Positions 20,693 through 41,686 of a DNA stretch of 49,001 nucleotides are shown piece by piece. The translations under genes and the position numbers were made by a program. The DNA comes from Rhodospirillaceae bacterium (GTDB taxonomy: Bacteria; Pseudomonadota; Alphaproteobacteria; Dongiales; Dongiaceae), in the NCBI GenBank assembly GCA_016794165.1, contig JAEUKV010000328.1, forward strand, positions 1-49,001, in the 5' to 3' direction. Numbering within the stretch: the first letter of the stretch is position 1; the number at the start of each line of letters is the position of its first letter. Under the pieces are notes generated by a model that saw nothing but the letters and a program-made list of their open reading frames with translations, searched no databases and was not told the origin of the DNA.

Positions 20693-22008
20693 CCAGCGCA
20701 TCTGACCTTGCCATCTTCCTCACCAATGACTTGACCGGAATCAGCCGCGGTCGCGCCTTCCCCATCGACGACCTCCGGGACCGCATGGTCGCAGGCTGCG
20801 GCTGGGTGCCGGCCAATCTGGCGCTGACGCCCTTCGGCGTCATCGGCGAAAACCCCTTCGGTCCGATCGGCGATCTGCGCCTGCAGCCCGACCGGGACAG
20901 CGACGGGTACAATCTCATGGGGATCGATGGCGAGCCCGACCTCCATGCCTATCTCTGCGATATCGTCGCGACCGACGGACAGCCCTGGGGCGGCTGCGGG
21001 CGCAGCTTTGCCAAGCGCGCCCTCGCCGATCTCGCCGGCGAATTCGGCCTGACTCTGAAGGCGTCCTTCGAACACGAATTCTTTCTGCTCGACCACCCGG
21101 CGAGACTGGACGGTGCCTTTACCCTGAGCGACTTCCGCGCGGCCCAGGGATTCCTGGGCACCGCCATGGGCGCCCTCGGTCGCGCTGGCGTCCATCCCGA
21201 GATGATCCTGCGGGAGTATGGGCCGAGACAGTTCGAGGTGACCATGAAGCCGGCCACCGGCCTTGCCGCCGCCGACCGCGCCGTCATCCTGCGCGACGTC
21301 ACGCGCGACATCGCCCGCCAGTTCAAGTCCCGCGCCTGCTTCAGCCCGATCATTGACCCAAGTTCGGTTGGGAGCGGCGTGCATCTGCACTTCAGCCTGA
21401 CCGCCTCCGACGGTACACCACGGACCCACGATCCGGCGGCGCCCGGCGGCATCAGCCAGCAGGCCGCCAGCTTCGTGGCCGGGATCCTGCGCCACATGCC
21501 CGCCCTCTGCGCGCTCACCGCGCCCAGCGCGATTTCCTATCTGCGGCTGACGCCACATCGCTGGAGCGCCGGGTTCAACTGCTTCGGCTATCGCAACCGC
21601 GAGGCCGGGGTCCGGATCTGTCCGGTCGACGATTCGCCGGGGCGCGACGTCAGCCGCCAGGTGCACCTCGAATTCCGCGCCTCCGATGCCACGGCAAGTC
21701 CGTTCATGGTGCTGGGTGCCCTGGTCCGCGCCGGGCTTGAGGGCCTGCGCGCCAAGCTGCCGGCGCCGCCTCTGGTGGAAGGCGACCCTGCCGACCTTTC
21801 GCCCGCGCAATTGCAGGCCATGAACATCCGGCGCCTGCCCGAATCGCTGCCCGAGGCGCTGGCCGAGATGCGCCGCGACGACGTGGTGATGGGCTGGCTG
21901 CCGCCCGAGCTCCAACAGGGCTATGCCGCCCTCAAGACCGCCGAACTGGCGCGCGTGGACGGCATGACGCCGCAGCAACAATGTGACCTCTATGCCAGCT
22001 GCTATTGA
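20689..22008 (+). CDS. Glutamine synthetase family ligase (GlnA/PuuA-like)
   Basis: A 439-residue protein of the glutamine synthetase superfamily. It has the N-terminal beta-grasp region (AFPIDDLRDRMV), the metal-site Glu motif SFEHEFFLL, SGVHLHFSL and FNCFGYRNREAGVRICP for substrate and ATP phosphate contacts, and RQVHLEFRASDATASPF. It is shorter and more divergent than GlnA and lacks the adenylylation-type tyrosine loop I would expect, so it is better read as a gamma-glutamyl-amine ligase (PuuA-like) acting on an amine, amino alcohol or amino acid. The GTG start at 20689 overlaps the regulator's stop. It heads the enzyme operon followed by two aminotransferase-type genes. Confidence 0.87.
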   Translation: MTSASDLAIFLTNDLTGISRGRAFPIDDLRDRMVAGCGWVPANLALTPFGVIGENPFGPIGDLRLQPDRDSDGYNLMGIDGEPDLHAYLCDIVATDGQPWGGCGRSFAKRALADLAGEFGLTLKASFEHEFFLLDHPARLDGAFTLSDFRAAQGFLGTAMGALGRAGVHPEMILREYGPRQFEVTMKPATGLAAADRAVILRDVTRDIARQFKSRACFSPIIDPSSVGSGVHLHFSLTASDGTPRTHDPAAPGGISQQAASFVAGILRHMPALCALTAPSAISYLRLTPHRWSAGFNCFGYRNREAGVRICPVDDSPGRDVSRQVHLEFRASDATASPFMVLGALVRAGLEGLRAKLPAPPLVEGDPADLSPAQLQAMNIRRLPESLPEALAEMRRDDVVMGWLPPELQQGYAALKTAELARVDGMTPQQQCDLYASCY

Positions 22009-23329
22009 GCGCAACGACGACCTGATGGCGCGCGATGCCGGCAGCATTGCCGGTATCCAGAAGCTGCGCTTCGGCCCCTTTGCGATTCGCGCGGGCGATG
22101 GCAACCGGCTGATTGCGGCGGACGGGCGATCGCTGATCGATTTCTCGGCCTCCTGGGGTGCCGCCAGTCTCGGCCACGGACACCCCGCCCTGGTCGAGGC
22201 CGTGCAACGGACACTCGGCGCCATGCCTGGCGCCAGCATCCTCTCCACCGTGAATGAGCCGGCTGTGTCTCTGGCCGAGAAACTGCTGGAACTGACGCCG
22301 GGCCAGGGCGAGCGGCGGGTCTGGTTCGGCCATTCCGGATCCGACGCCAACGAGACCATCATCCGCGCCGTCGAGGCGGCGACCGGGCGAAAGCGCGTAA
22401 TCGCCTTCGTCGGCGCCTATCATGGCGGCACCACGCTTTCCATGTCGGTTTCCGGCCATACGGCCCAGGCCCATGCGACGCCACGCCCGGGCCTTTTCCT
22501 GCTGCCCTATCCCAATCCCTACCGGCCGCATTTCCCGGGTGCCGTCGGCGAGGCGACATTGGCCCATCTCGACTACCTGCTCGCCACCGTCTGCCCAGCT
22601 CATGACACGGCGGCGATCCTGATCGAGGCGATCCAGTCCGATGGTGGGTTGCTGGTGCCGCCGCCCGGATTCCTCGCCGCCGTCGCCGATCGCGCCAGGC
22701 GCCACGGCATCCTAGTGGTCTGCGACGAAGTGAAGGTCGGGCTCGGCCGGACCGGCATGATGCATGCCTTCGCCGCTGAGGGCGTGGAACCCGACCTCAT
22801 CAGCTTCGGCAAGGGGCTGGGTGGCGGGCTGCCTCTCTCGGCGGTGGTGGGACCGGCCGACATCCTCGACCGACAGACGGCCTTTGCCATGCAGACCCTG
22901 TGCGGCAACCCGGTCAGCTGCGCCGCCGGCAATGCGGTGCTGGAGACCATCGCCAAGGAAGGCCTGGTGGACAATGCGGCCCAGCGCGGCGGCGAGATCA
23001 TGACCGGCCTGCGGCGACTGGCGGAGCGCCATCCCCAGATCGGCGATATCCGCGGCCGCGGCCTCGCCATCGGCGTCGAATTGGTCGCGGACCGAACGAG
23101 CCGGGAACCGGCCAGCCGGTTCTGCCAAAAGGTCGTCTATCGCTGCTTCGAGCTGGGGCTCTTGCTGTTCTACGTCGGGCTGCGCTCGAATGTGCTGGAA
23201 CTGACACCACCCATGACCCTCACCGCCCGCGAAGTCGAAAAGGGCCTCGACATCCTCGATCGGGCGATCGGCGATGTGGCCACCGGCCGTGTGCCGGATG
23301 CTGCCATCGCCGCCTATGCCGGCTGGTAA
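21992..23329 (+). CDS. Class III aminotransferase (GABA/ornithine aminotransferase family)
   Basis: A 445-residue PLP enzyme, with the PLP phosphate site HSGSDANE, AFVGAYHGGTT, the cofactor Asp245 in VVCDEVKVGLGRTG and the Schiff-base Lys274 in SFGKGLGGGLPLSAVVG. The fold places it with 4-aminobutyrate, ornithine and putrescine aminotransferases. The start overlaps the ligase gene: ATG 21992 is chosen over GTG 21983, and neither has a good ribosome site, which fits translational coupling. The neighbouring ligase and the kinase-M23-aminotransferase fusion suggest an amine-degradation pathway in which this enzyme removes an amino group. The substrate is unknown. Confidence 0.9.
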   Translation: MPAAIERNDDLMARDAGSIAGIQKLRFGPFAIRAGDGNRLIAADGRSLIDFSASWGAASLGHGHPALVEAVQRTLGAMPGASILSTVNEPAVSLAEKLLELTPGQGERRVWFGHSGSDANETIIRAVEAATGRKRVIAFVGAYHGGTTLSMSVSGHTAQAHATPRPGLFLLPYPNPYRPHFPGAVGEATLAHLDYLLATVCPAHDTAAILIEAIQSDGGLLVPPPGFLAAVADRARRHGILVVCDEVKVGLGRTGMMHAFAAEGVEPDLISFGKGLGGGLPLSAVVGPADILDRQTAFAMQTLCGNPVSCAAGNAVLETIAKEGLVDNAAQRGGEIMTGLRRLAERHPQIGDIRGRGLAIGVELVADRTSREPASRFCQKVVYRCFELGLLLFYVGLRSNVLELTPPMTLTAREVEKGLDILDRAIGDVATGRVPDAAIAAYAGW

Positions 23330-23354
23330 CCCCCAAAGCGAGATCTCAACCGAT

Positions 23355-26399
<3,045 letters not shown>

Positions 26400-26445: not shown

Positions 26446-27699
26446 TCAGATGCCGGCTTCGCGATTGGCGCCCTTCAGTCCGCGCCGCAGGGCACCCCAG
26501 AAGGCGCGCCAGTTTCCCATGAAGCCAGCGCGCAGGATCATGGCCAAGGGTCGGTAGCGCCGCACCCGAAGATGCGGCTGCCCGGCACAGGCAAGGCCGA
26601 GATTGCGCGCCGGCTGGCCGAGCTTCCGGTCGAGATGGTCGCCATGCATCGGATAGAGCTCGGGCACCGAAAAACGATCCAGCGCCAGGGCACCCGCGGC
26701 CGCGGCCCGCTCGATCAACCGAGCGCCGGCCCGGGTCCGCGCAATGGCGATGTTGACCCCCTGCCCCTCGCGATGGATCGGGACGCCATTCTCCATGATC
26801 CAGCCATCGGGGGCGGCAACATCGGCCAGTTCGCCGATGGCATCGGGACAGATCTTGCAGCGGAACTGCATGTCGTAGGTCCAACTCGCCTGGGGATTGT
26901 ACCAGGCATCGTCATAGGTGAGATCGAAGCTGCGGCCGTCTCTGGTTTCCAGATGCGTCGTTCCCGGCCAGCCATAGCCGCGCCAGCGGAACAGCGACAA
27001 TTCCTCGGCCGCCACGCCGAAATGGGCGGCGATGTCCTTGGCCGTGCCGGTCGACGGCACGCCGCCGCAGAACAGGGTCAGGCAGTATTTCACCAGCGTC
27101 CGCGCCCGGGCATCGACCCGGGCCAGATTGCGAATGGCCGCGATGTCGCAGGGCTTGGCGATGACGGCGAGCCGCAGTCCACGCGCAAGCAGGGCGTCGA
27201 TGTGGACCAGGGGCGCTCCCGGACCATAGCGCGACTGGGACCCCTCGATCACCTCGGCGGGTGTGTAGCTGACATGGGCATCGGTCAGGATCGGATCCGT
27301 CGTGGCTGCCTTGACGTGGACGATCGCATCCACTTCGCCGCTTTGGAGCAGGTAACATCCGAGAGCCGTGAGCGTGCCGCCGGCCGCGGCGCGGTGACGG
27401 ATGGCGGGATCTCCCGCCCAGGAGCGATGGATCGAGACCACCGGCCCCCAGACCGGATCGATGGCACCGAAGCCTTCCGGATCCGCCGCAGTGGGGCCGG
27501 TCACCACCGCGCCGGGGCAGACCTCCAGGATGCGGGCTTCCACATCCTGGTCGATCGCACCCTTGATCTGGGGCCGCAGGTGACCGTAGGAGGTGAGGCG
27601 CATCTCCACCTTGTCGCGACCGGCCATGCTCTCGCAGATGCCGCAATTCGCGCACAGGCCATGCTCGACCACCGATTTCAGGCTGCTGACCCGGCTCAT
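26446..27699 (-). CDS. Coenzyme F420 hydrogenase/dehydrogenase beta-subunit family Fe-S flavoprotein (FrhB-like)
   Basis: A 417-residue FrhB-family protein. An N-terminal cluster motif Cys16-x2-Cys19-x2-Cys22 (GLCANCGICES) leads into AAAGGTLTALGCYLLQSGEVDAIVHV and further cysteines in AKPCDIAAIR, KYCLTLFCGG and FRCKICPD, the set seen in family members that carry flavin and Fe-S clusters. True F420 hydrogenase is not expected here; bacterial relatives act as ferredoxin-dependent reductases, for example on polyprenyl, sugar or tetrapyrrole substrates. GAGGG precedes ATG 27699. It lies 24 nt behind the Baeyer-Villiger-type monooxygenase in the same direction, so the two are probably co-transcribed, but its role in oxidation chemistry is unclear. 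Confidence 0.83.
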   Translation of the reverse strand: MSRVSSLKSVVEHGLCANCGICESMAGRDKVEMRLTSYGHLRPQIKGAIDQDVEARILEVCPGAVVTGPTAADPEGFGAIDPVWGPVVSIHRSWAGDPAIRHRAAAGGTLTALGCYLLQSGEVDAIVHVKAATTDPILTDAHVSYTPAEVIEGSQSRYGPGAPLVHIDALLARGLRLAVIAKPCDIAAIRNLARVDARARTLVKYCLTLFCGGVPSTGTAKDIAAHFGVAAEELSLFRWRGYGWPGTTHLETRDGRSFDLTYDDAWYNPQASWTYDMQFRCKICPDAIGELADVAAPDGWIMENGVPIHREGQGVNIAIARTRAGARLIERAAAAGALALDRFSVPELYPMHGDHLDRKLGQPARNLGLACAGQPHLRVRRYRPLAMILRAGFMGNWRAFWGALRRGLKGANREAGI

Positions 27700-27723
27700 G
27701 CCCTCTTTGCTCCGCTGGGTCCG

Positions 27724-29340
27724 TCAGGCCGCGGCATTCATGCGCAAACGAAACCCAGCATAACCCTGCCGGGCAATCTCGTCACACTGGTCGCAATAGG
27801 CCTTGAAGCCCGCCACATAGGCCAGGAACACATGCGGCTTGCCGGGGACGTTGGCGCCGATATACCAGGATTGCGCCCGGGGATAGAGCGTCCGGTCGGC
27901 ATCCTGCCAGACCTGCCGCGCCCATCCTTCCTGCGCCGCCGGCTCGGCCTCGATCTCGCCGATCTGCTGCGCGCGCGCATGGTCGATGAGGGTGCTGATC
28001 CATTCCACATGCTGCTCGCCTGCGAGCAGCACATTGGCGAGCACCGACGGACTGCCCGGACCGGTCACGATGAACATGTTGGGAAACCCGGCGACGGCCA
28101 TGCCCAGATAGGCGGTGGCACCGTCCGCCCAGGCGGCACTCAGCTTGCGGCCCTGCCGGCCGGTGATCTCGATCCGCTGCAGCGCGCCGGTAAAGGCATC
28201 GAAGCCGGTGGCCAGGACGAGCGTGTCGAAGGAATAGCTGGCCTTCCCGGTCTTCAGGCCATCGGGGGTGATGCTTTGGATCGGATCGCCGTGGATGTCG
28301 ACCAGGGTCACGTTGTCCCGGTTGTAGGTCTCGTAATAGCCGGTATCCACGCAAAGCCGCTTGGCCCCGAGCGGATGATCCCTGGGGCACAGCAATTCGG
28401 CCACCTTGGGATCGCGCACGGTCGCGCGAATCTTGCGGCGCACAAAATCGGCGGCCAGACGGTTCGCTTCTGCGGATTCCATCACATCGGTAAAAAAATA
28501 CTGGATGTTGAAACCGCCCTGCTGCCAGCATTTTTCGAAGGCTGCCTCGCGGTCTTCGGGCGAGAGGTCCATGATGGTCAGGATCGCCTCTTCGGCGTAG
28601 TCGCCGGCATAGGAGTTGCGTGATTTCCGCCGCAAGCTGGCATAGTCGCGCTTCATCGCCGCGACCTTGTCGTCGGACATCGGCGCGTTCCAGGCCGGAA
28701 CCGAGAAATTGGCCGTGCGCTGGAACACGGTGAGATACTCGGCCGCTTGCGCGATGAGCGGGATCGACTGGATGCCGGAGGAACCCGTGCCGATGATCCC
28801 CACGCGGCGGCCGGTGAAGTCGACGCCTTCCCGCGGCCAGTCGGCGGTGTGGAAGACATCGCCGGCGAAGCTGTCCAGCCCCGGCACATCCACCTTCTTG
28901 GGAACCGACAGGCAGCCCGTCGCCATGATGAGGAAGCGCGCCAGGAACCGCTCGCCGCGATCCGTCGTCACCGCCCATTTCGCCGCCGACTCGTCATAGG
29001 TGGCATCCGTGACCTGGGTTCCGAACTGGATGTCGCGCCGCAAGTCGAACTTGTCGGCGACATGCCGGGCATAGCGCAGGATCTCGGGCTGTGTTGCATA
29101 GCGGTGCGACCATCGCCATTCCTGCTGCAGCTCGTCGGAGAACGAGTAGGAATAGCTCATGCTTTCGATATCGCAACGGGCACCGGGATAGCGGTTCCAG
29201 TACCAGGTGCCGCCGACATCGTCGCCCTTCTCGATGGCGCGGATCGAAAATCCCAGCCCGCGCAGGCGATGGATCGCATACATGCCGGCAAAACCGGCAC
29301 CGACGATAAGGACGTCGACCTCGCGCACTTGACCAACCAT
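27724..29340 (-). CDS. Baeyer-Villiger-type flavin monooxygenase
   Basis: A 538-residue class B flavoprotein monooxygenase. It has the FAD site GAGFAG (14-19), GGTWYWNRYPGARCD, the BVMO fingerprint FAGDVFHTADWP (158-169) and the NADPH site GTGSSG (184-189). Size and the GTWYWNRYPG element match cyclohexanone/phenylacetone-type enzymes, which insert oxygen beside a ketone to give an ester or lactone. The ATG at 29349 directly abuts GAGGAG; the ATG at 29340 has it nine nucleotides upstream and is preferred. It is divergent from the di-iron desaturase gene across a 197-nt region containing one of the two twin promoters. It may act after an alcohol dehydrogenase produces a ketone. Confidence 0.93.
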   Translation of the reverse strand: MVGQVREVDVLIVGAGFAGMYAIHRLRGLGFSIRAIEKGDDVGGTWYWNRYPGARCDIESMSYSYSFSDELQQEWRWSHRYATQPEILRYARHVADKFDLRRDIQFGTQVTDATYDESAAKWAVTTDRGERFLARFLIMATGCLSVPKKVDVPGLDSFAGDVFHTADWPREGVDFTGRRVGIIGTGSSGIQSIPLIAQAAEYLTVFQRTANFSVPAWNAPMSDDKVAAMKRDYASLRRKSRNSYAGDYAEEAILTIMDLSPEDREAAFEKCWQQGGFNIQYFFTDVMESAEANRLAADFVRRKIRATVRDPKVAELLCPRDHPLGAKRLCVDTGYYETYNRDNVTLVDIHGDPIQSITPDGLKTGKASYSFDTLVLATGFDAFTGALQRIEITGRQGRKLSAAWADGATAYLGMAVAGFPNMFIVTGPGSPSVLANVLLAGEQHVEWISTLIDHARAQQIGEIEAEPAAQEGWARQVWQDADRTLYPRAQSWYIGANVPGKPHVFLAYVAGFKAYCDQCDEIARQGYAGFRLRMNAAA

Positions 29341-29447
29341 CGCCGTCATCTCCTCTGCTCAGGCGCGTCGCCGAGCCATTTGCAAGTCGCTGCAGTCAGC
29401 TTGAAATGGCTGCTTTCTGCCGAAAACTGGGGGGCCCAAAGTAATAC

Positions 29448-29482
29448 TTGACAGCCATACAGTTTTCTTGATGATAGTACAA
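29448..29482 (+). promoter_or_regulatory. Twin promoter/operator A, upstream of the desaturase gene
   Basis: TTGACA (29448-29453), a 17-bp spacer and ATGATA (29471-29476) point to the desaturase gene, 56 nt downstream. The 35-bp block matches twin B upstream of the GMC gene at 28 positions, including CATACA and CTTGATGATA inside and beyond the spacer. The conserved spacer suggests a bound regulator and not just RNA polymerase; the BetI/TetR-type protein at 32262 is the candidate. Confidence 0.6.
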
Positions 29483-29537
29483 CAACAATCGTAGCGACGT
29501 CCGGCCGGTCCTGGCCGGCAGCGGGAGGATCGGCAAC

Positions 29538-30413
29538 ATGGCCAAGGCGGGTTCGACGATCGCCAAGGAAATCGAGATCGGCCGGCGGTATTCCCCGGAT
29601 ATCGCCTGGCCCACCATTCGCCTTGCCATCGGCGTCTACGCCGCGCTCGGCGCCAGTATCTGGGCCGCCGTGAGCGGCCTGATGCCCTATTGGGCGGCCG
29701 GCATCATCAACGCCATCGTCCTCTATTCCGCCTACACCGTCATCCACGAGGCCGTGCACAACAACATCGTGCCGCGCAACAGGCGCCTCGCCTGGGTCAA
29801 CAAGTTGCTTGGCTTTGCCGTCTGCATCCTGTTGTGGATGTTCTTCTATCCACACAAGAAGTCGCATATGGCGCACCACACCAAATGCAACACCGATGAG
29901 GATCCGGACATCTACGCCCGGGGCGAATTCGGAACGGTCGCCTTCTGGCGCATTCCGCTGGCGGCTCTCAGCCATTTCAACCCATTCGGCCTGCGTCGCG
30001 ACTGCGAGCGCTTCAACGTGACGGCACGGGAGCGCGCCATTTCCTACGCAACCTTTGCCGCCTACAGCGCCGTCGTCATCGGCCTGGTCGCTTTCGGCTA
30101 TGGCTACGAACTTCTGGTCCTGTGGTTCATTCCCTGGCTGATCGGCTATTCCATCATGCTGGTGTTCTTCACATGGATACCGCATCATGCCCATACTGAA
30201 ACGGGCCGCTATCGGAACACGCGCTGCTCGATCTGGCCGGGTGCCAATTTCCTGACCCAGGGCCAGCATATGCATCTCATTCATCATTTGATGCTGTGGA
30301 TTCCCTACTATCAGTACGAACAGGTCTTTCGCGAAATCCGTCCCTATCTCGAGCAGAACAACGCGATGATCGACGGCTTCTGGCCGCGCATCGACCAGCC
30401 GGCGAACAGCTAG
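29538..30413 (+). CDS. Membrane di-iron fatty acid desaturase / hydroxylase family protein
   Basis: A 291-residue integral membrane protein with four hydrophobic stretches and the histidine clusters of membrane di-iron oxygenases: HEAVH (70-74), HMAHH (110-114), HHAH (216-219) and HMHLIHH (244-250). Spacing fits the fatty-acid-desaturase and carotenoid-hydroxylase/ketolase group, which uses O2 and electrons from a ferredoxin-type reductase to hydroxylate or desaturate hydrophobic substrates. A reductase with flavin and 2Fe-2S domains is encoded nearby, which would complete the system. It converges on the GMC gene. GGGAGG lies upstream of ATG 29538. Whether it acts on fatty acids, terpenoids, sterols or a small alkyl compound cannot be told. 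Confidence 0.88.
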   Translation: MAKAGSTIAKEIEIGRRYSPDIAWPTIRLAIGVYAALGASIWAAVSGLMPYWAAGIINAIVLYSAYTVIHEAVHNNIVPRNRRLAWVNKLLGFAVCILLWMFFYPHKKSHMAHHTKCNTDEDPDIYARGEFGTVAFWRIPLAALSHFNPFGLRRDCERFNVTARERAISYATFAAYSAVVIGLVAFGYGYELLVLWFIPWLIGYSIMLVFFTWIPHHAHTETGRYRNTRCSIWPGANFLTQGQHMHLIHHLMLWIPYYQYEQVFREIRPYLEQNNAMIDGFWPRIDQPANS

Positions 30414-30439
30414 GCCGGCGCGGCTCTCTCGGACCAACT

Positions 30440-32068
30440 TCAACCGACCGGCGGTCGGTAGGCCGGGGCCAGGGCCGGTGCGCCGGCAATCATGTCGGCG
30501 GCCTTCTCCGCGATCATGATGGTGGGGGCGTTGAGATTGGCACTGGTGACCGAGGGCATGACCGAGGCATCGACCACGCGCAAGCCCTCGATGCCCCGCA
30601 CGCGCAACTCCGGATCGACCACCGCCATCCCATCGACGCCCATCTTGCAGGTGCAACTCGGGTGAAACTCAGTTTCCGCCTTCGCTCGGATGAAGGCGTC
30701 GATGTCGGCATCGCTACGCACATCCGGCCCGGGCAGAATTGGTGTCGGCTGGAGAGATTTCAGCGCCGACCCATTGAGAATCTCCCGCACCAGGCAAATC
30801 CCATCGCGGAATTCCTGCCGATCCGAATCGGTAGCCAGGAAGTTGAAGGCGATTACCGGCTTGTCATGGGGATCGGCCGAGGCGAGGTGGATGCGGCCGC
30901 GGCTCTCCTGGCGCAGCTGCGAGAGGTGCAGCATGAACCCGCGCGCCAGCTTCAGCCTCGTGCCCACCTGCTCGATCGAGACCGGGCCCAGATGGAACTG
31001 CAGATTGGCATGTGGCAGATCCGGTCGCGATCTGGCAAACCCGCCGATTTCGTAGATGTTGGACGCGGCCGGACCGGAGCGGTCGAGCAGCCAGCGCGCC
31101 CCGACATAAAGCTTGGCCAGCGGGTTATCCAGCCACTCGATCGACACCGGTTTGGCGAGGCCGAATTTCAGCCCGACATCCATGTGATCCTGCAGATTGG
31201 CGCCGACGCCGGGCAAATCGAGCTGAACCGGAATATCGTGGCGCGCTAGCTCGTCCGCTGGGCCGATGCCCGAGAGCATCAGCAGCTGCGGCGAGTTGAT
31301 CGCCCCACCCGACAGGATCACCTCACGTTTGGCCGTGACCTCGACCACCTCGCCGCCGCGCTCATAGCGCACGCCAACCGCCCGGCCACCCTCGATCAAG
31401 AGCTGGTGGACCAGCGCCCCGGTGAGAACGGTGAGATTGGGCCGGTTCATGGCGGGATGGAGATAGGCGACGGCGGCGCTGCAACGCTCACCGCGCCGCT
31501 TGGTGCTGTCGAGGCGCGCAAATCCCTCCGGCTGCGCCCCGTTGAGGTCATCCGATATGACATGGCCGGCTTCGCCCGCCGAATCGAGAAAGGCATCAAA
31601 GATTGGAGATTCCAGGCGGCCGCGCTCCGTCGACAGCGGCCCGCTGTCGCCGCGATAGAAGCTGCCGCCGCGATCGCTGGTCTCGGCGCGCTTGAAATAG
31701 GGCAAGCAATGGGCGTAGTCCCAGTGCGGCAGGCCGGTCGCCGCCCAGCGGTCGAAATCCAGCGGGTGGCCGCGCAGATAGACCATCGAATTGATCGAGG
31801 AGGAACCGCCCAGCACGCGCCCACGCGGCACCGGTATCCGCCGGCCGTCCATGCCGGCCTGGGGTGCGCTTTCGTAACTCCAATTGGTGCGCGGATCGAG
31901 ATACTGCCGGTAAACACCCGCCGGCATGCGCATCATCAGCCCGCCATCGCGCGGCCCGGCTTCCAGAAGCAGCACACGCGCCTGGGGATCCGCGCTCAGG
32001 CGATTGGCAAGTACACAGCCCGCCGAGCCACCACCGACAATGATGAAATCGAACGCATTCCGGCGCAT
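30440..32068 (-). CDS. GMC family oxidoreductase (choline/alcohol dehydrogenase type)
   Basis: A 542-residue flavoprotein of the glucose-methanol-choline family. It has the N-terminal FAD motif IIVGGGSAGCVLANRL, GRVLGGSSSINSMVYLRGHPLDFDRWA, GAINSPQLLMLSGIGP, and the active-site HPSCTCKMG with VVDASVMPSVTSANLNAPTIMIAEKAAD at the end. The overall pattern is that of choline dehydrogenase BetA and the alkane-pathway alcohol dehydrogenase AlkJ; both oxidise primary alcohols to aldehydes using membrane acceptors. The ATG at 32068 sits four nucleotides after GGGGAG; ATG 32071 and an upstream frame to 32167 are alternatives. Divergent from the BetI-like regulator and reductase genes, it has twin promoter B directly upstream. 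Confidence 0.93.
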   Translation of the reverse strand: MRRNAFDFIIVGGGSAGCVLANRLSADPQARVLLLEAGPRDGGLMMRMPAGVYRQYLDPRTNWSYESAPQAGMDGRRIPVPRGRVLGGSSSINSMVYLRGHPLDFDRWAATGLPHWDYAHCLPYFKRAETSDRGGSFYRGDSGPLSTERGRLESPIFDAFLDSAGEAGHVISDDLNGAQPEGFARLDSTKRRGERCSAAVAYLHPAMNRPNLTVLTGALVHQLLIEGGRAVGVRYERGGEVVEVTAKREVILSGGAINSPQLLMLSGIGPADELARHDIPVQLDLPGVGANLQDHMDVGLKFGLAKPVSIEWLDNPLAKLYVGARWLLDRSGPAASNIYEIGGFARSRPDLPHANLQFHLGPVSIEQVGTRLKLARGFMLHLSQLRQESRGRIHLASADPHDKPVIAFNFLATDSDRQEFRDGICLVREILNGSALKSLQPTPILPGPDVRSDADIDAFIRAKAETEFHPSCTCKMGVDGMAVVDPELRVRGIEGLRVVDASVMPSVTSANLNAPTIMIAEKAADMIAGAPALAPAYRPPVG

Positions 32069-32166
32069 CATTCTCCCCACTTCCGACTCGCGCGGCTGGA
32101 ACGACTGATGCGCTGCCGCGTCCCACCCCGCCCGGCAAGGGCGCCAAACCGCCGCGGAGAAAGACA

Positions 32167-32201
32167 TTGTCTTATCATCAAGTAATTTGTATGTGTGTCA
32201 A
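32167..32201 (-). promoter_or_regulatory. Twin promoter/operator B, upstream of the GMC gene
   Basis: On the minus strand TTGACA (32201-32196), 17 bp, then ATGATA (32178-32173) point into the GMC gene. Of 35 positions, 28 equal twin A at 29448. Because it lies between GMC and the regulator-reductase unit, a protein bound here could control both directions. Confidence 0.6.
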
Positions 32202-32261
32202 GGACGAGATCGCGGTATCTCGGGCGGCGTTTGCACCGACCGCCGTCAGGGAGGATCAGGC

Positions 32262-32912
32262 ATGAGAACCAGCATCGAGAAGATTCGGCGGCGCGATCTG
32301 GTCGAGGCGGCCTTCCAGACCTTTCTGGATCACGGCATGAACGGCACCACCGTTGCCCGGATCGGCGAGCAGGCCGGCATGTCGCACGGCATCGTCAACT
32401 ACTACTTCAAGAGCAAGGACCAATTGCTGAGTGCCGTGATCCGGCACGCCTTCGCCCTGATCCTGCGACAGGCGGTCGATCGCATGCGCCTCGCCACGAC
32501 TCCGCGCGAGCGCATCTCCGCGATTATCGCCGGCAACTTCTCGGAGGACCTCTTCAACCGCGAAACGGCGGCCGCCTGGATTTCCTTCTATGCCGAAGTC
32601 GCCACACGCCCCGAATTCGAGCGGTTGCAGGACACCTTCTATCGGCGTCTGCACAGCAACCTCCTGCACGACCTGAAAAAGATCACGACCCCCGCCGAGG
32701 CGGAGAATATCGCCCTCGGTATCAGTGTCTGGATCGACGGTCTGTGGCTGCGCTGTGCCATGCGGCGGATGGGTGTCGAGCGGGACGCCGCCATAGCGGC
32801 CATCGAAAGCTATGTCGACACCAGCTTGGCGCAGGCCAACAATACGGCAAGCGGTACGACGCGCAAGAGCCCGGCACGGCGACGCGCGGCGGTGCCGGCC
32901 AATCGGCGCTAG
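32262..32912 (+). CDS. TetR family regulator, BetI-like
   Basis: A 216-residue TetR-family repressor. The N-terminal DNA-binding region reads IRRRDLVEAAFQTFLDHGMNGTTVARIGEQAGMSHGIVNYYFKSKDQLL, with the BetI-style IRR start and GIVNYYFKSK recognition helix. The C-terminal part (FNRETAAAWISFYAEVATRPEFERLQDTFYRRL) matches the BetI ligand domain, and a basic tail (TRKSPARRRAAV) follows. AGGGAGG precedes ATG 32262. It is divergent from the GMC gene and 20 nt ahead of the reductase. E. coli BetI senses choline; here the ligand may be choline-like, but this is inference. It is the best candidate to bind the twin promoter blocks. Confidence 0.92.
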   Translation: MRTSIEKIRRRDLVEAAFQTFLDHGMNGTTVARIGEQAGMSHGIVNYYFKSKDQLLSAVIRHAFALILRQAVDRMRLATTPRERISAIIAGNFSEDLFNRETAAAWISFYAEVATRPEFERLQDTFYRRLHSNLLHDLKKITTPAEAENIALGISVWIDGLWLRCAMRRMGVERDAAIAAIESYVDTSLAQANNTASGTTRKSPARRRAAVPANRR

Positions 32913-32932
32913 CCAGCCAAAGAAGGACCGCA

Positions 32933-33937
32933 ATGACCCACGAACTGACTGTGCGCGGCGTGGTCGACGAAACCGCGGACACCCGGTCGATCGAATTCGA
33001 CGTGCCGACCGCGCTTTCCGCCACCTTCGCCTACAAGCCCGGCCAGTTCCTGAGCTTCGACATCGCCGTGGACGGCGTATCGCTGCGGCGCTGCTACTCC
33101 CTTTCCAGCACGCCCGGGATCGATCCGTTCCCGAGGGTCACGGTCAAGCGGGTCGCCGACGGCCGCGTGTCCAACTGGATCAATGACAGGGTCAAGGCGG
33201 GGGACCGCCTGTTGGTGGCGCCACCCGCCGGCCGCTTCGTTCTCGCCGACGAGGCGGCGCCGCTGTGCCTCTATGCCGGGGGCAGCGGCATCACCCCCAT
33301 CATCTCGATCCTGAAATTCGCGCTGGCCACCTGGACCACGCCCATTCGCCTGTTCTATGCCAATCGCAGTGCCGATACCGTCATCTTCCAGGCAAGCCTC
33401 GACCGGCTTGCGGCGGAGCATCCGACGCGGCTGCGGATCCACCATCACCTCGATCTCCGCGACGGGCTGACCACCCAGGGGGAAATCGACGACTTCGTCA
33501 AGGATACCCCGGGCTGGCGGCACTACATCTGCGGCCCGGCGCCCTTCATGGCGCTGGTGGAATCGACGCTGGCGGCGCGGCAGGTACCGGCTGGCGACAT
33601 CCATGTCGAGCGATTCACCGCGAGCGAGGACGACGCCGTGCCCCAAGCGCCGGCGGCGGGTGCTGTCGAAGCCGAGATCATTATCACCCTTGATGGTGAA
33701 ACCCGGCAGATTCGCGGGCGGGCCGGCGAAACCGTTCTGGAAGCAGCGCGCCGGGCCGGGTTGCAGCCCCCCTCAAGCTGCGAATCCGGCATCTGCGCGT
33801 CCTGCCTTGCCAAGATCACGCGGGGGCGTGCCACCATGACCCACAACGAGGTGCTCAACGACGATGAGATCGCCGAGGGCCTGACCCTGACCTGTCAGGC
33901 CGTGCCGGCATCCGACGAATTGCACGTCGAATACTGA
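32933..33937 (+). CDS. Ferredoxin-NAD(P)H reductase with C-terminal 2Fe-2S domain
   Basis: A 334-residue three-domain electron-transfer protein. An FAD-binding barrel (RRCYSLSS at 52-59) is followed by an NAD(P) domain (GGSGITPIISIL near 116-127, later CGPAPFM) and a plant-type 2Fe-2S domain with Cys283-x4-Cys288-x2-Cys291-x29-Cys321. Such proteins (PaaE, GbcB, KshB, HmpX-like) pass electrons from NAD(P)H to an oxygenase. The only obvious oxygenase partner nearby without its own reductase domain is the membrane di-iron protein at 29538. AGAAGGA precedes ATG 32933. It is co-directional with the regulator (20-nt gap) and converges on the MDR gene. Confidence 0.94.
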   Translation: MTHELTVRGVVDETADTRSIEFDVPTALSATFAYKPGQFLSFDIAVDGVSLRRCYSLSSTPGIDPFPRVTVKRVADGRVSNWINDRVKAGDRLLVAPPAGRFVLADEAAPLCLYAGGSGITPIISILKFALATWTTPIRLFYANRSADTVIFQASLDRLAAEHPTRLRIHHHLDLRDGLTTQGEIDDFVKDTPGWRHYICGPAPFMALVESTLAARQVPAGDIHVERFTASEDDAVPQAPAAGAVEAEIIITLDGETRQIRGRAGETVLEAARRAGLQPPSSCESGICASCLAKITRGRATMTHNEVLNDDEIAEGLTLTCQAVPASDELHVEY

Positions 33938-33961: not shown

Positions 33962-34969
33962 CTAGATCTTCAGCACGACCTTGCCAACGGCCTTCCCGCT
34001 TTCGAGATGGGTATGGGCCGCCGCCGCCTCGGAGAGATCGAAGATGCGATCGACCAGGACCCGAAGCTGGCCGCTGGCGACCAGTGACAGACCCTGCCCG
34101 ATATGATGGGCCTGCGCACGTAGGCGCTCTTCAAGGCCGAGCCACATGGGTGTCAGCATCATGACGTTGTGGATGGTGAGGTTGCCGTTATAGGCATCGG
34201 TCTCGGCCGTGTCCCCCGGTGTCCCCATCAGGGTCACCACCCGGCCATAGGGCGCCATCGCCCTGAAGGTCTGCAGCATGATCTCGGCGCCGACATTGTC
34301 GAAGGCAACGTCGAGGCCGCGCCCTCCGGTCCAATCGCGCGCGGCGGCCACAAAATCCTGCTCGCGGTAGGGAATCGCGAGATCGGCGCCGAGTTCCCGC
34401 GCCAGTTCCGCCTTCGCTGCGCTGCCAACGGTCGTTGCCACCCGGGCGCCCCGTAGTTTGGCCAGCTGCACGCCGACATGCCCGGTACCGCCGGCCCCGG
34501 CATGGATGAGAACGGATTCACCGGCCTTGACGTCGGCGCGGTCGCAGAGCGACTCCGCGAGCGTGATGAAGACCAGCGGCAACGCCGCCGCTACCGTGAA
34601 GTCAATCGCATCGGGAATTGTCACCACCACGTCGGCCGGGACGGTGGCGAACTCGGCATAGGTGCCGGGGGCGCCGCCGATGCCGCCATAGCAGAAACAC
34701 ACCCGATCACCGGGCCTGACCGCCGTCACGCCGGCGCCGACCGCCTCGACGATACCCGCACCGTCATGACCCAGGATGAGCGGGCCGCCAGAATCGAGAT
34801 AGCCGCCCAGCTGGCGAAAGAAGGTATCGGCCGGATTGAGCGCTGCTGCCTTCAGCCGTACCAGCACGTCGCCCCGCCCGGCCGGCCAGCGCAGATCTAC
34901 CTCTCTCTGCTGCAGGACATCTGGGCCGCCCTTCGCTGTGGCGACGATTGCCTTCATCTTCTTTGTCAT
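33962..34969 (-). CDS. MDR-type quinone oxidoreductase / zinc-independent alcohol dehydrogenase
   Basis: A 335-residue medium-chain dehydrogenase/reductase. It starts KAIVATAKGGPDVLQQREVDLRWPAGRGDVLVRLKAAALNPADTFFR and has GHDGAGIVEAVGAGV, the cofactor site HAGAGGTGHVGVQLAKLRGA and FDNVGAEIML. The zinc-ligand cysteines of classical alcohol dehydrogenases are absent, so it belongs with NADPH quinone oxidoreductase (QOR/zeta-crystallin) and enoyl-reductase types. It starts 14 nt after the betaine-type permease stop, so it is the last gene of that transporter operon. That position suggests it acts on the imported compound or a product of it. Confidence 0.92.
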   Translation of the reverse strand: MTKKMKAIVATAKGGPDVLQQREVDLRWPAGRGDVLVRLKAAALNPADTFFRQLGGYLDSGGPLILGHDGAGIVEAVGAGVTAVRPGDRVCFCYGGIGGAPGTYAEFATVPADVVVTIPDAIDFTVAAALPLVFITLAESLCDRADVKAGESVLIHAGAGGTGHVGVQLAKLRGARVATTVGSAAKAELARELGADLAIPYREQDFVAAARDWTGGRGLDVAFDNVGAEIMLQTFRAMAPYGRVVTLMGTPGDTAETDAYNGNLTIHNVMMLTPMWLGLEERLRAQAHHIGQGLSLVASGQLRVLVDRIFDLSEAAAAHTHLESGKAVGKVVLKI

Positions 34970-38271: not shown

Positions 38272-38300
38272 GGGCCAGGTCCCCGCCGGGAACCTGGCCC
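38272..38300 (-). terminator. GC-rich hairpin between binding-protein and ATPase genes
   Basis: Read as RNA of the minus strand, arms GGGCCAGGTTCCC and GGGGACCTGGCCC pair over 13 bp with one G-U wobble and a GGC loop. It begins 18 nt after the binding-protein stop and has no U-tract. It probably acts as a 3' stabiliser or partial terminator lowering expression of the downstream ATPase and permease, not as a full operon end. The rest of the 175-nt gap shows nothing else. Confidence 0.65.
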
Positions 38301-39571: not shown

Positions 39572-39601
39572 ATTTTATTATCCAATCAAAAAATTGGACA
39601 A
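39572..39601 (-). promoter_or_regulatory. Candidate promoter with internal dyad for the betaine-type operon
   Basis: On the minus strand TTGTCC (39601-39596), an 18-bp spacer and TAAAAT (39577-39572) resemble a promoter. Within the spacer region TCCAAT and ATTGGA (39581-39598) form a perfect 6-bp inverted repeat around six bases, a classical repressor position. It would give a leader of about 280 nt before the binding-protein start. Confidence 0.4.
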
Positions 39602-39676
39602 GCATCAAGGAAATTCTGAGCATGACCTGGATCGGGGCGGGCGGGGGTCCTTCGAACCCGCGCCCCGGATCCTGGC

Positions 39677-41686
39677 TCAGCAGTAATCCCGCGGCAGATC
39701 GTAGGATTCCTCGTCGCTGAAGATGCGCACGCCACTGTCGAATGCATCCATGCGCGCGGTGATATGGAAGACATCCCGTGCCGCGGCGAGGCTGGTGACA
39801 CTGACGGTACGGGCCTCCCAATCCGGCCCTTTCAGCATCTGCTCGTAGCTGATCTCGACCCGATAGCTGAGCGGATCGTTGTTCCGGATCCGGTAGGTCT
39901 CGATCACGCGACAATCGGAGGTGACGCCGATCTCGCTGAAATGATAGCCCCCGGCATCCTTGGTGTTGACGAGCACGGTCTCGCCGGCCGCTATGTCGAT
40001 CTGTACGTCGCGGGCGCTGCGACCTGGCCGAGTGACATGACCCGGGGCCGGCGGTGCCGCCTCGGCCGGCGGCACCGCGATGGGCGGATCCCCGGTGTCA
40101 CTGGGGCGCACGGGCAGGAACAACTGGCAACCGTCGGTGTGGAGGCTCAGCGTCACTGCCTCGGGTGCCGGCATCATCATCGGCCAGTAATTGGTCGAGA
40201 CCGCGACGCGCAGGCGATGGCCGGGCAGAAAGGCGTGAGCGATGTAGTTGAGAGGAATCCGCGCGCTGTAGCGCCGGCCGGGCTCAAGGTCGACCGGCGC
40301 GGCCTGGTCGTCCTTGTGGTTGAGGCTGAAGACGCAGAAGGTGACGCGGGTCGAGGTGCCGTCGGCGGCGACGTCGTTGAGGCGCACGGCAACGCGCGCC
40401 ACCGGCCGGTCGACGCTGAACGCCAGTTCCACAATGGGCTGGCCGAAGATCTCCAGCCGTTCGGCCAGCATTGCGCCGTCGAAACACAGCGACATGCCAT
40501 CATCGGCGCGCTGGTCGTCCGGATAGTCCCCGTCGCTGTCGCCGTAGGAACACCATTCGACCGATCCCAGGCCGCAATTCTGCGGCGATTTGACAGCGAG
40601 CGTCACGCTTTCGGTCGCTCCGAGGCGGCGGTCACCGAAAGGAATTTTCCGGGTTTCGATCCGCGGGCTCGGCCAGTCGGTCTCGGCGATCCAGCGGCCC
40701 GGTCGCTCCATGGCGCAAGGGTCGGGCGTATATGAATCGTTCATCCATGCGATCAGGCGCGGATCGCGCTCCACGCCGGTATCGATATCTTTCAACCAGC
40801 GGTCCCACCAGCGCAGGGCCTCCTGCAGGAAACCCGCCTGCGGACCGGGCAGGGCGTTGTGGGGATAGGCGTGACCCCAGGGGCCGATCCATCCCTTCAC
40901 CGGCGCCTTGATATGCTGGCACAGGCGCGGCACGGCGTTGGAATAACCGTCCTCCCAGCCGCCGATGGCAAAGACCGGACAGGCGATGGCCGTGTAGTCC
41001 TCGATCACCGAGGCCTGGCGCCAATAGGCGTCGCGGCGCTGATGGCCACCCCAGATGTGGAACGGAAAGCGGTAGTGCCGCAGGCGCGCCAGCCATGCCT
41101 CGCGCCAGATATCACCCACGATTTCCGGATCCGGCGGCAGCACTGCATAGGCGTACATTGCCGAGGCCCAGGAGAAATTGTCGTGCAGCAGCACGCCCTG
41201 CATGTAGTGGACGTCGTCGTTGTAGCGGTCGTCGGAGGCGTCGACCGTGATGATCGCGCGCAGGGCCGGCGGCCGGTGTGCGGCCACCTGCAACGCATTG
41301 AAGCCGCCCCACGAAATTCCCATCATGCCGACCCTGCCGGCGCACCAGGACTGTCGTGCGATCCAGTCGATGGCGGCGACAAGATCGGCCTGCTCTGCGG
41401 GGGTGTATTCGTCGTCGGGGAGGCCGTCCGATTCGCCGGTGCCACGCAGGTCGATGCGCAGAACCGCATAGCCGTGTCCCGCGACATAAGGATGCATTTC
41501 ATCGTCGCGATAGCGCAGGCCGTCACGCTTGCGATAGGGAACGCATTCGATAACGGCCGGGACGGGTTTGTCATCGGCGTCTTCGGGCAGCCACATGCGC
41601 GCGGCGAGCCGGGTTCCATCGGGCAGTGGAATCCAGATGTTCTCGATATGACGGACGGCATGGGGGAATGTGGTCACGACGGTCAT
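39677..41686 (-). CDS. CocE/NonD (X-Pro dipeptidyl-peptidase-like) hydrolase
   Basis: A 669-residue serine hydrolase of the CocE/NonD, S15-like family. The alpha/beta-hydrolase domain has the nucleophile Ser125 in GISWGGF, Asp246 in GGWEDGY and His272 in GPWGHAYPH. A C-terminal galactose-binding-like jelly roll from about residue 430 contains SLNHKDDQAAPVDLEPGRRYSARIPLNYIAHAFLPGHRLRVAVSTNYWP, as in cocaine esterase and PepX. No signal peptide is seen, so it acts in the cytoplasm. It diverges from an Opp-type peptide transporter, which suggests X-Pro dipeptide release or cleavage of imported acyl-peptides. Substrates in this family vary (esters, beta-lactam esters, X-Pro peptides). Confidence 0.9.
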   Translation of the reverse strand: MTVVTTFPHAVRHIENIWIPLPDGTRLAARMWLPEDADDKPVPAVIECVPYRKRDGLRYRDDEMHPYVAGHGYAVLRIDLRGTGESDGLPDDEYTPAEQADLVAAIDWIARQSWCAGRVGMMGISWGGFNALQVAAHRPPALRAIITVDASDDRYNDDVHYMQGVLLHDNFSWASAMYAYAVLPPDPEIVGDIWREAWLARLRHYRFPFHIWGGHQRRDAYWRQASVIEDYTAIACPVFAIGGWEDGYSNAVPRLCQHIKAPVKGWIGPWGHAYPHNALPGPQAGFLQEALRWWDRWLKDIDTGVERDPRLIAWMNDSYTPDPCAMERPGRWIAETDWPSPRIETRKIPFGDRRLGATESVTLAVKSPQNCGLGSVEWCSYGDSDGDYPDDQRADDGMSLCFDGAMLAERLEIFGQPIVELAFSVDRPVARVAVRLNDVAADGTSTRVTFCVFSLNHKDDQAAPVDLEPGRRYSARIPLNYIAHAFLPGHRLRVAVSTNYWPMMMPAPEAVTLSLHTDGCQLFLPVRPSDTGDPPIAVPPAEAAPPAPGHVTRPGRSARDVQIDIAAGETVLVNTKDAGGYHFSEIGVTSDCRVIETYRIRNNDPLSYRVEISYEQMLKGPDWEARTVSVTSLAAARDVFHITARMDAFDSGVRIFSDEESYDLPRDYC

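What the first reader, a model, noticed from the sequence alone, without database searches (positions are those of the whole stretch)
26446..33937. Candidate oxidation module: di-iron hydroxylase, reductase, GMC dehydrogenase, Baeyer-Villiger enzyme and FrhB-like protein under one regulator
Seen: within 7.5 kb lie a membrane di-iron oxygenase, a flavin/2Fe-2S reductase with no other obvious partner, a choline/alkanol-type GMC dehydrogenase, a class B monooxygenase, an FrhB-like Fe-S flavoprotein and a BetI-like regulator. Known: these families catalyse hydroxylation, alcohol oxidation and ketone oxygenation. Inference: they form a stepwise oxidation route for one hydrophobic or quaternary-amine compound, perhaps imported by the adjacent betaine-type transporter. 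I know of no described pathway with exactly this set.
Basis: partly seen in the sequence, partly recalled or inferred. Interest (0 to 1): 0.75.

Follow-up and report, generated by a model that had tools for sequence, protein, structure and literature searches.

The report
Quaternary-amine oxidation module with Baeyer-Villiger enzyme
A rare bacterial gene set pairs an importer for choline-like (quaternary amine) compounds with a membrane hydroxylase, a choline-dehydrogenase-like enzyme and a Baeyer-Villiger enzyme that cuts carbon chains next to a ketone, which suggests an undescribed way to break such compounds down; the compound itself is unknown.

Summary
The genes are real and correctly named. 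Comparison supports a smaller core than proposed: DES (membrane desaturase/hydroxylase), GMC, BVMO and the ProXVW importer lie together in the window and in one Rhodospirillaceae MAG (L005), although DES is rare (6 relatives found). BVMO forms a 100/99-supported clade with L005 and a Mesorhizobium plasmid (L012); all three have a TmoX-like ProXVW within about 13 kb. None of 64 other whole-genome BVMO loci do (about 9 kb; 32 of them extended to about 18 kb). ProX keeps the four-Trp box and the Glu of the TMAO-binding protein TmoX, so a trimethylammonium-type ligand is likely. A palindrome upstream of DES in a relative, beside a similar regulator, has exact half-sites at both divergent promoters here, supporting one BetI-like regulator. 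FrhB was not found beside the module elsewhere, nor the reductase beside DES. Most likely: import of a quaternary ammonium compound, hydroxylation, oxidation to a ketone, Baeyer-Villiger cleavage, ester hydrolysis. The substrate is unproven. A bold candidate is the butyrobetaine/carnitine/trimethylaminoacetone route, whose last step seems to lack an assigned enzyme (one paper, passages only). Main rivals: separate functions, or apocarotenoid/terpenoid oxidation.

The parts
29538..30413 (+). DES: membrane FA_desaturase-superfamily enzyme (probable di-iron hydroxylase), 291 aa
   Evidence: Pfam PF00487 5e-30; best NCBIfam model CrtR beta-carotene hydroxylase, 95.7 bits, below its 475-bit cut-off; three His boxes invariant in 6 sequences; 6 relatives found
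27724..29349 (-). BVMO: type I Baeyer-Villiger monooxygenase of the PAMO/steroid-monooxygenase group
   Evidence: 52.9% identity to 1w4x, R337 and D66 kept; in a 100/99 clade with L005 and L012
30440..32167 (-). GMC oxidoreductase, choline-dehydrogenase-like (probable start about 32071)
   Evidence: NF002550 716 bits (cut-off 605), TIGR01810 betA 637 (cut-off 732, not met); nearest solved chain is an oxygen-dependent choline dehydrogenase
32262..32912 (+). BetI-like TetR regulator
   Evidence: TetR_C_6; TIGR03384 196.1 versus cut-off 201.3 and NF001978 187.5 versus cut-off 118; the G010 TetR beside DES is 60% identical and identical over the presumed recognition helix
32933..33937 (+). RED: PaaE/GbcB-type flavin, NAD and 2Fe-2S reductase, co-directional with TetR (20-bp gap)
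   Evidence: Pfam Fer2, NAD_binding_1, FAD_binding_6; below the PaaE and GbcB cut-offs
26446..27699 (-). FrhB/FdhB-like Fe-S flavoprotein, 24 bp downstream of BVMO (probable operon); not part of the conserved core
   Evidence: Pfam; contexts of 16 relatives
33962..34969 (-). ADH: quinone-oxidoreductase-like MDR (best model TIGR02824, below its cut-off), last gene of the transporter operon
   Evidence: a 53% relative is divergent from DES in L004
34984..37116 (-). ProW: betaine-type ABC permease
   Evidence: 53% relative in L005
37073..38158 (-). ProV: betaine-type ABC ATPase
   Evidence: 69% relative in L005 and 61% in L012
38319..39371 (-). ProX: TmoX-like substrate-binding protein with four-Trp box
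   Evidence: 4xz6, 4e-61; pocket residues
29467..29475 (+). half-site CTTGATGAT in the BVMO|DES divergent promoter region
32174..32182 (-). half-site CTTGATGAT in the GMC|TetR divergent promoter region
39601..39609 (-). one-mismatch half-site upstream of ProX (weak)
39677..41686 (-). CocE/NonD-type hydrolase, a possible ester hydrolase (membership speculative)
   Evidence: Pfam Peptidase_S15 and PepX_C; a 46% relative lies in the BVMO/ProX locus L015

Best explanation
A horizontally patchy catabolic module for a quaternary ammonium (trimethylammonium-type) compound. ProXVW imports it. DES, fed electrons by RED (inferred) or another reductase, hydroxylates a C-H. The choline-dehydrogenase-like GMC enzyme oxidises the alcohol to a carbonyl. 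The PAMO-type BVMO inserts oxygen beside the ketone to give an ester or lactone. An esterase (CocE/NonD here, perhaps the metallo-hydrolase in L005) hydrolyses it. The BetI-like TetR represses BVMO-FrhB, DES, GMC and TetR-RED from two divergent promoters. Shown: gene content, the recurrent DES+GMC+BVMO+ProXVW set in two organisms, the BVMO clade with its transporter, the pocket residues and the shared half-sites. Inferred: the order of steps, the substrate, repression itself, and the roles of RED, ADH and the hydrolase.
For: L005 holds ProX 53%, ProV 69%, ProW 53% (cut by the locus edge), GMC 48%, BVMO 62% and DES 63% in 11 kb, with a Rieske oxygenase between BVMO and DES whose best model is GbcA (below cut-off). 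Window, L005 and L012 BVMOs form a 100/99 clade; each has a TmoX-like ProXVW (9, about 3 and 13 kb away), against 0 of 64 other whole-genome BVMO loci within about 9 kb (49 with at least 8 kb on both sides) and 0 of the 32 of these that were extended. ProX keeps W55, W102, E131, W177 and W222 of TmoX in window, L005, L012 and L105, while F106 and F220 are changed (pocket from passages of PMC8918994). Of nine clade-specific BVMO positions, D256, Y257, E260 and Q289 (PAMO numbering) are polar or acidic and lie in or beside a stretch that I recall as near the pocket. L004 has DES divergent from ADH, with an ALDH whose best model is betaine-aldehyde dehydrogenase (below cut-off) and a ProV. Half-sites at both promoters: 79 copies in 3.74 Mb, so chance of both is about 1e-5. 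L106 pairs the same ProXVW type with a 47% GMC.
Against: Only one relative (L005) holds the full core. DES has no module neighbour in 3 of 6 relatives. G010 has DES+TetR but no BVMO at 1e-60, and neither do G397, G399 and G400. In G351 DES and BVMO are on different contigs. GMC hits also occur near five BVMOs outside the clade (L014, L050, L071, L079, L096), so GMC-BVMO proximity alone is weak. Two CTTGATGAT in the whole window is not striking (6 of 100 shuffles reach it), the second half-sites are degenerate, and the motif was chosen after I had scanned 17 regions. L012's ProX would have been missed at the 9-kb flank used for the first control. The same ProXVW type occurs in L105 and L106 without a BVMO or DES hit. 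RED was found beside DES in no relative. DES's best family model is a carotenoid hydroxylase.
Confidence: 0.5

Rival explanations
1. Apocarotenoid or terpenoid oxidation: DES is a carotene-hydroxylase-like ring hydroxylase, GMC oxidises the ring alcohol, BVMO cleaves or lactonises the ketone; the betaine transporter is an unrelated neighbour.
For: DES's best NCBIfam model is beta-carotene hydroxylase CrtR (95.7 bits, below cut-off); in G010 DES-TetR lies near an RPE65-family (carotenoid cleavage type) oxygenase and three alpha/beta hydrolases; PAMO/steroid-type BVMOs act on hydrophobic ketones (recalled).
Against: The transporter with its trimethylammonium box recurs with this BVMO clade and with DES; the regulator and GMC are of choline-pathway type; several clade-specific BVMO residues are polar or acidic.
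Confidence: 0.18
2. Neighbouring but separate functions: TetR, GMC and ProXVW form a choline/betaine-type unit, while DES, BVMO and FrhB are unrelated acquired genes.
For: Half of the DES relatives and all 16 FrhB loci examined lie in other surroundings; the ProXVW type occurs without a BVMO or DES hit in L105 and L106.
Against: The same rare DES and the same BVMO clade recur with ProXVW and GMC in L005; half-sites at both divergent promoters; G010 links the same TetR type directly to DES.
Confidence: 0.22
3. Rieske partnership (compatible with the main reading): RED serves one of the Rieske oxygenases elsewhere in the genome (N-demethylation), and DES uses another electron donor.
For: RED matches the GbcB and PaaE models, below their cut-offs; 12 Rieske catalytic matches lie elsewhere in the genome; L005 has a Rieske oxygenase between BVMO and DES; no RED hit in L002-L009.
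Against: In the window RED follows the regulator that is predicted to control DES by 20 bp, so they probably share an operon.
Confidence: 0.3

Closest known systems
Choline/glycine betaine locus (betA, betI, ProXVW-type uptake)
   Same: BetI-like regulator, GMC choline-dehydrogenase-like enzyme, betaine-type ABC importer
   Different: Adds a membrane hydroxylase and a Baeyer-Villiger enzyme; the betA equivalog cut-off and one of two betI cut-offs are not met; the GMC product must be a ketone for a BVMO to act on it as usual
Cyclohexanone/PAMO-type ketone degradation (hydroxylase or alcohol dehydrogenase, BVMO, esterase; recalled)
   Same: Order alcohol -> ketone -> ester -> hydrolysis; BVMO 53% identical to PAMO
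   Different: Linked to a quaternary-amine importer; polar and acidic clade-specific residues
TmoXVW (TMAO uptake)
   Same: Four-Trp box and Glu of TmoX kept in ProX
   Different: 36% identity over the aligned part; both pocket Phe replaced, suggesting a larger ligand than TMAO (inference)
Carnitine degradation through 3-dehydrocarnitine or trimethylaminoacetone
   Same: Quaternary amine, secondary alcohol to ketone; L012 has, beside its ProXVW, a gene whose best models are carnitine dehydrogenases (below cut-off), a BKACE-family gene and a Rieske gene closest to GbcA (below cut-off)
   Different: No BVMO is part of the route described in the passages read (PMC12482172)
GntB / CrtR membrane hydroxylases
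   Same: FADS superfamily His boxes
   Different: Both models match far below their cut-offs

Membership tests
Type I BVMO (PAMO group) | Fingerprint FxGxxxHxxxWP (pattern recalled) and two GxGxxG | tested here: met
   FAGDVFHTADWP, GAGFAG and GTGSSG read in the translation
Type I BVMO (PAMO group) | Catalytic Arg337 and Asp66 (PAMO numbering; D66 role recalled) | tested here: met
Type I BVMO (PAMO group) | Converts a ketone to an ester | not testable with these tools
   needs enzyme assay
Membrane FA_desaturase superfamily | Pfam domain and conserved His boxes | tested here: met
   (12 invariant His in 6 sequences, three boxes)
Beta-carotene hydroxylase CrtR | NCBIfam NF045688 cut-off 475 bits | tested here: not met
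   95.7 bits
Choline dehydrogenase BetA | TIGR01810 equivalog cut-off 732 bits | tested here: not met
   636.8 bits; broader NF002550 met with 716.4 versus 605
BetI repressor | NCBIfam equivalog cut-offs | tested here: inconclusive
   TIGR03384 196.1 versus 201.3 (not met); NF001978 187.5 versus 118 (met)
TmoX-like substrate-binding protein | Pocket W55, W102, F106, E131, W177, F220, W222 | tested here: inconclusive
   5 of 7 kept: all four Trp and the Glu; F106 is V and F220 is M
GbcB or PaaE reductase | Model cut-offs 500 and 420.8 bits | tested here: not met
   161.2 and 238.8 bits
F420-reducing hydrogenase FrhB | TIGR03289 cut-off 331.5 bits | tested here: not met
   33.4 bits; the Pfam FrhB_FdhB domains are met

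The most novel reading that the evidence does not exclude
The module oxidises gamma-butyrobetaine or a close analogue: DES makes carnitine (in place of the 2-oxoglutarate dioxygenase), GMC makes 3-dehydrocarnitine, which loses CO2 to trimethylaminoacetone, a close shape-mimic of phenylacetone, and the PAMO-type BVMO plus an esterase turns this into glycine betaine (or acetate plus trimethylamine). This would supply an enzyme for the trimethylaminoacetone step, which the one paper passage I read cites from cell-free extracts.
Probability: 0.12. Interest if true: 0.8.

Novelty: new variant of a known kind. Interest (0 to 1): 0.52.

Why it matters
If right, Baeyer-Villiger chemistry would join Rieske demethylation, CoA-dependent cleavage and corrinoid demethylation as a way bacteria open quaternary amines, which are abundant osmolytes and precursors of trimethylamine. 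It gives testable enzymes for an old step without an assigned enzyme (trimethylaminoacetone to glycine betaine) and a simple binding test, ProX ligand screening, to find the substrate.

Tried and rejected
DES structure: AlphaFold2 gave mean pLDDT 40, so no fold search was made. DES had no sequence match among solved structures at E up to 1 and none on plasmids at 1e-20. FrhB as a conserved module part: rejected on the contexts of 16 relatives; yet one 41% plasmid relative (L108) lies near a different ProXWV, and FrhB and BVMO relatives share genomes more often than expected (see full report). PAMO-like BVMOs in general as evidence of the module: rejected. The VOC proteins near DES in L005 and L007 are only weakly alike (30% over 43 aa). 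Papers: searches showed no description of this gene set among the titles and abstract starts listed; only passages of PMC13245600, PMC8918994, PMC12482172 and PMC9604523 were seen. PMC9604523 does not mention P253 or R258, so the place of PAMO residues 253-260 near the pocket is recalled.

A slip mended: the reductase query was in a wrong frame (start off by one), so says nothing on RED; the frame was right from then on, and the DES loci were searched again.
Full report
WHAT IS THERE. Left to right: FrhB 26446-27699 (-), BVMO 27724-29349 (-), DES 29538-30413 (+), GMC 30440-32167 (-), BetI-like TetR 32262-32912 (+), reductase RED 32933-33937 (+), then a (-) operon ProX-ProV-ProW-ADH (39371 down to 33962). 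BVMO and FrhB are 24 bp apart, TetR and RED 20 bp; BVMO|DES and GMC|TetR are divergent pairs.

HOW RARE. With DES as query, hits were 2 of 61 genomes (the own genome and 60 relatives, 1e-30), 2 of 17 genomes of the order, 2 of 385 drawn from the class at 1e-50 and 1 of 398 drawn from the phylum at 1e-60; each count includes the window's own genome. A contig scan gave 4 loci (it needs short exact peptide matches, so it can miss relatives) and plasmids none. So 6 relatives are known: G010 (L008), G351 (L009), L004, L005, L006, L007. BVMO occurs in 1 of 17 genomes of the order at 1e-100, the window's own. The locus therefore looks accessory and horizontally patchy.

CONSERVED SET. Fifteen window proteins against the DES loci at 1e-6 (L002 and L003 are shorter cuts of L008 and L009): L005 (Rhodospirillaceae MAG) holds ProX 53%, ProV 69%, ProW 53% (cut by the locus edge), GMC 48%, BVMO 62% and DES 63% within 11 kb, with a Rieske oxygenase (best model GbcA, below cut-off) and a VOC protein between BVMO and DES. 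L004 (5.7-kb contig, so incomplete) holds DES divergent from an ADH of 53%, a ProV of 44% and an ALDH closest to betaine-aldehyde dehydrogenase but below its cut-off. G010 holds DES next to a TetR 60% identical to the window's. L006, L007 and L009 share no module neighbour; L006 has 5.5 kb and L007 0.9 kb on one side. No RED hit occurred in any of these loci.

BVMO CLADE AND TRANSPORTER. In a tree of 70 BVMOs the window, L005 and L012 (Mesorhizobium plasmid) form a clade with support 100/99. Each has a TmoX-like ProXVW: 9 kb, about 3 kb and 13 kb from BVMO. Among 64 other BVMO loci taken from whole genomes (some genomes give two or three; 49 have at least 8 kb on both sides), 0 have ProX, ProW, DES, FrhB or CocE at 1e-6 within the fetched flanks of about 9 kb. 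For 32 of these loci flanks were extended on one or both sides to about 18 kb, again with 0 such hits; this was needed because L012's distance exceeds the first flank. One ProV-like piece appeared at the edge of an extended stretch (G081); 14 kb more there showed a ProV-like ATPase of 44% over 238 aa but no ProX or ProW. Three plasmid BVMO loci outside the clade were also read: L013 and L014 have no ProX, V or W hit; L015 (Phyllobacterium) has an annotated but distant ProX (22% identity), ProVW and a 46% CocE relative, perhaps a second origin of the pairing. GMC hits occur near 5 BVMOs outside the clade, so GMC alone says little. L012's ProXVW stands beside genes closest to carnitine dehydrogenase and GbcA (both below cut-off), a BKACE-family gene that passes the model of 3,5-dioxohexanoate:acetyl-CoA acetone transferase, and an aminobutyraldehyde-dehydrogenase-subfamily gene.

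LIGAND TYPE. ProX's best solved relative is 4xz6, E 4e-61. That 4xz6 is TmoX of Ruegeria pomeroyi is recalled, but all seven TmoX pocket residues given in PMC8918994 (passages) fall on the stated letters of this chain. W55, W102, E131, W177 and W222 are kept in window, L005, L012 and L105; L106 has F at 222; F106 and F220 are replaced in all of these. I read this as a trimethylammonium ligand somewhat larger than TMAO. In BVMO nine positions are clade-specific (D176, W226, D256, Y257, E260, L268, N287, Q289, L385); D256, Y257, E260 and Q289 would suit a cationic ketone, but their closeness to the pocket is recalled, not measured.

REGULATION. Upstream of DES in G010 lies the perfect palindrome ATCATCAAGGATACTTGATGAT (perfect in its two 9-base half-sites). 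Its half-site CTTGATGAT occurs exactly at 29467-29475 (BVMO|DES) and 32174-32182 (GMC|TetR), and with one mismatch upstream of ProX (39601-39609). The genome holds 79 copies in 3.74 Mb, so both intergenic regions being hit has a chance of about 1e-5. Cautions: two copies in the whole window is reached by 6 of 100 shuffles, 17 regions were inspected first, and the partner half-sites are poor; the full palindrome with up to 3 mismatches occurs once in the window, at BVMO|DES (expected 0.09; 9 of 100 shuffles reach it). L004 and L005 show no exact half-site upstream of DES. The two TetRs are identical over AGMSHGIVNYYFKSKD, which I take to hold the recognition helix (assignment recalled).

FRHB AND REDUCTASE. 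In the class 14 genomes besides the window's own hold FrhB relatives at 1e-60 (15 of 308 with it), one of them in the same genus without DES or BVMO (G005). In the 16 loci examined (4 of them under 14 kb) none has DES, BVMO, ProX or RED at 1e-8; one has a 52% GMC (L152). At the level of whole genomes, however, 9 of the 14 also hold a BVMO at 1e-140 somewhere, against 85 of 385 genomes (Fisher p 0.0006; it assumes that all 14 were in that draw and ignores kinship). So FrhB looks like a local addition, but a functional tie to BVMO is not excluded. RED belongs to a type used by Rieske oxygenases, and the genome has 12 Rieske catalytic matches elsewhere; its pairing with DES is inference from operon and regulator only.

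MECHANISM. Import, hydroxylation, oxidation to ketone, Baeyer-Villiger insertion, hydrolysis. The most specific guess uses passages of PMC12482172: carnitine to trimethylaminoacetone and on to glycine betaine has been seen in cell-free extract of a Pseudomonas AK1 (as cited there), and those authors infer novel enzymes. A PAMO-type BVMO is a natural candidate because trimethylaminoacetone mimics phenylacetone in shape, but the electron-poor CH2-N+ group may migrate badly, so the methyl ester of glycine betaine or another product may form. I give this route 0.12.

NOVELTY. Searches listed no bacterial quaternary-amine pathway with a BVMO, judged from titles and abstract starts; the one listed paper that holds all four terms concerns mushroom muscarine, where a Baeyer-Villiger step is proposed (PMC13245600, passages). 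The library is open-access only.

Noticed in passing
19784-26399: A (+) run of RpiR-type regulator, glutamine-synthetase-like enzyme, class III aminotransferase and a phosphotransferase-M23-aminotransferase fusion (PRK06148-type, 1396 bits) abuts FrhB tail to tail; looks like a separate amine-catabolic unit.
   Followed up: partly
38272-38300: Strong GC-rich inverted repeat (arms up to 14 bp, one mismatch allowed) just downstream of the ProX stop and before ProV; may raise ProX mRNA over ProVW.
   Followed up: no
L105 14019-24363 (Pseudohalocynthiibacter plasmid): The same ProXVW type (ProX 50%, ProV 63%) stands a few kb from a different, 337-aa fatty acid desaturase, an oxygenase-type ferredoxin and molybdopterin oxidoreductases: perhaps an independent pairing of a membrane hydroxylase with this importer.
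   Followed up: partly
L108 (Pseudomonas sp. MPC6 plasmid): A 41% FrhB relative lies 5 kb from a ProXWV operon with mandelate racemase, tautomerase and SDR genes.
   Followed up: partly
L008 9431-14232: In G010 DES and its TetR lie near an RPE65-family oxygenase, the basis of the apocarotenoid rival.
   Followed up: partly
L005 10899-12956: A 685-aa FMN/FAD old-yellow-enzyme-type protein lies next to DES in L005; it could be an N-demethylase or an enoate reductase.
   Followed up: no
class-wide: FrhB and BVMO relatives share genomes (9 of 14) more often than BVMO occurs overall (85 of 385), though at separate loci.
   Followed up: partly
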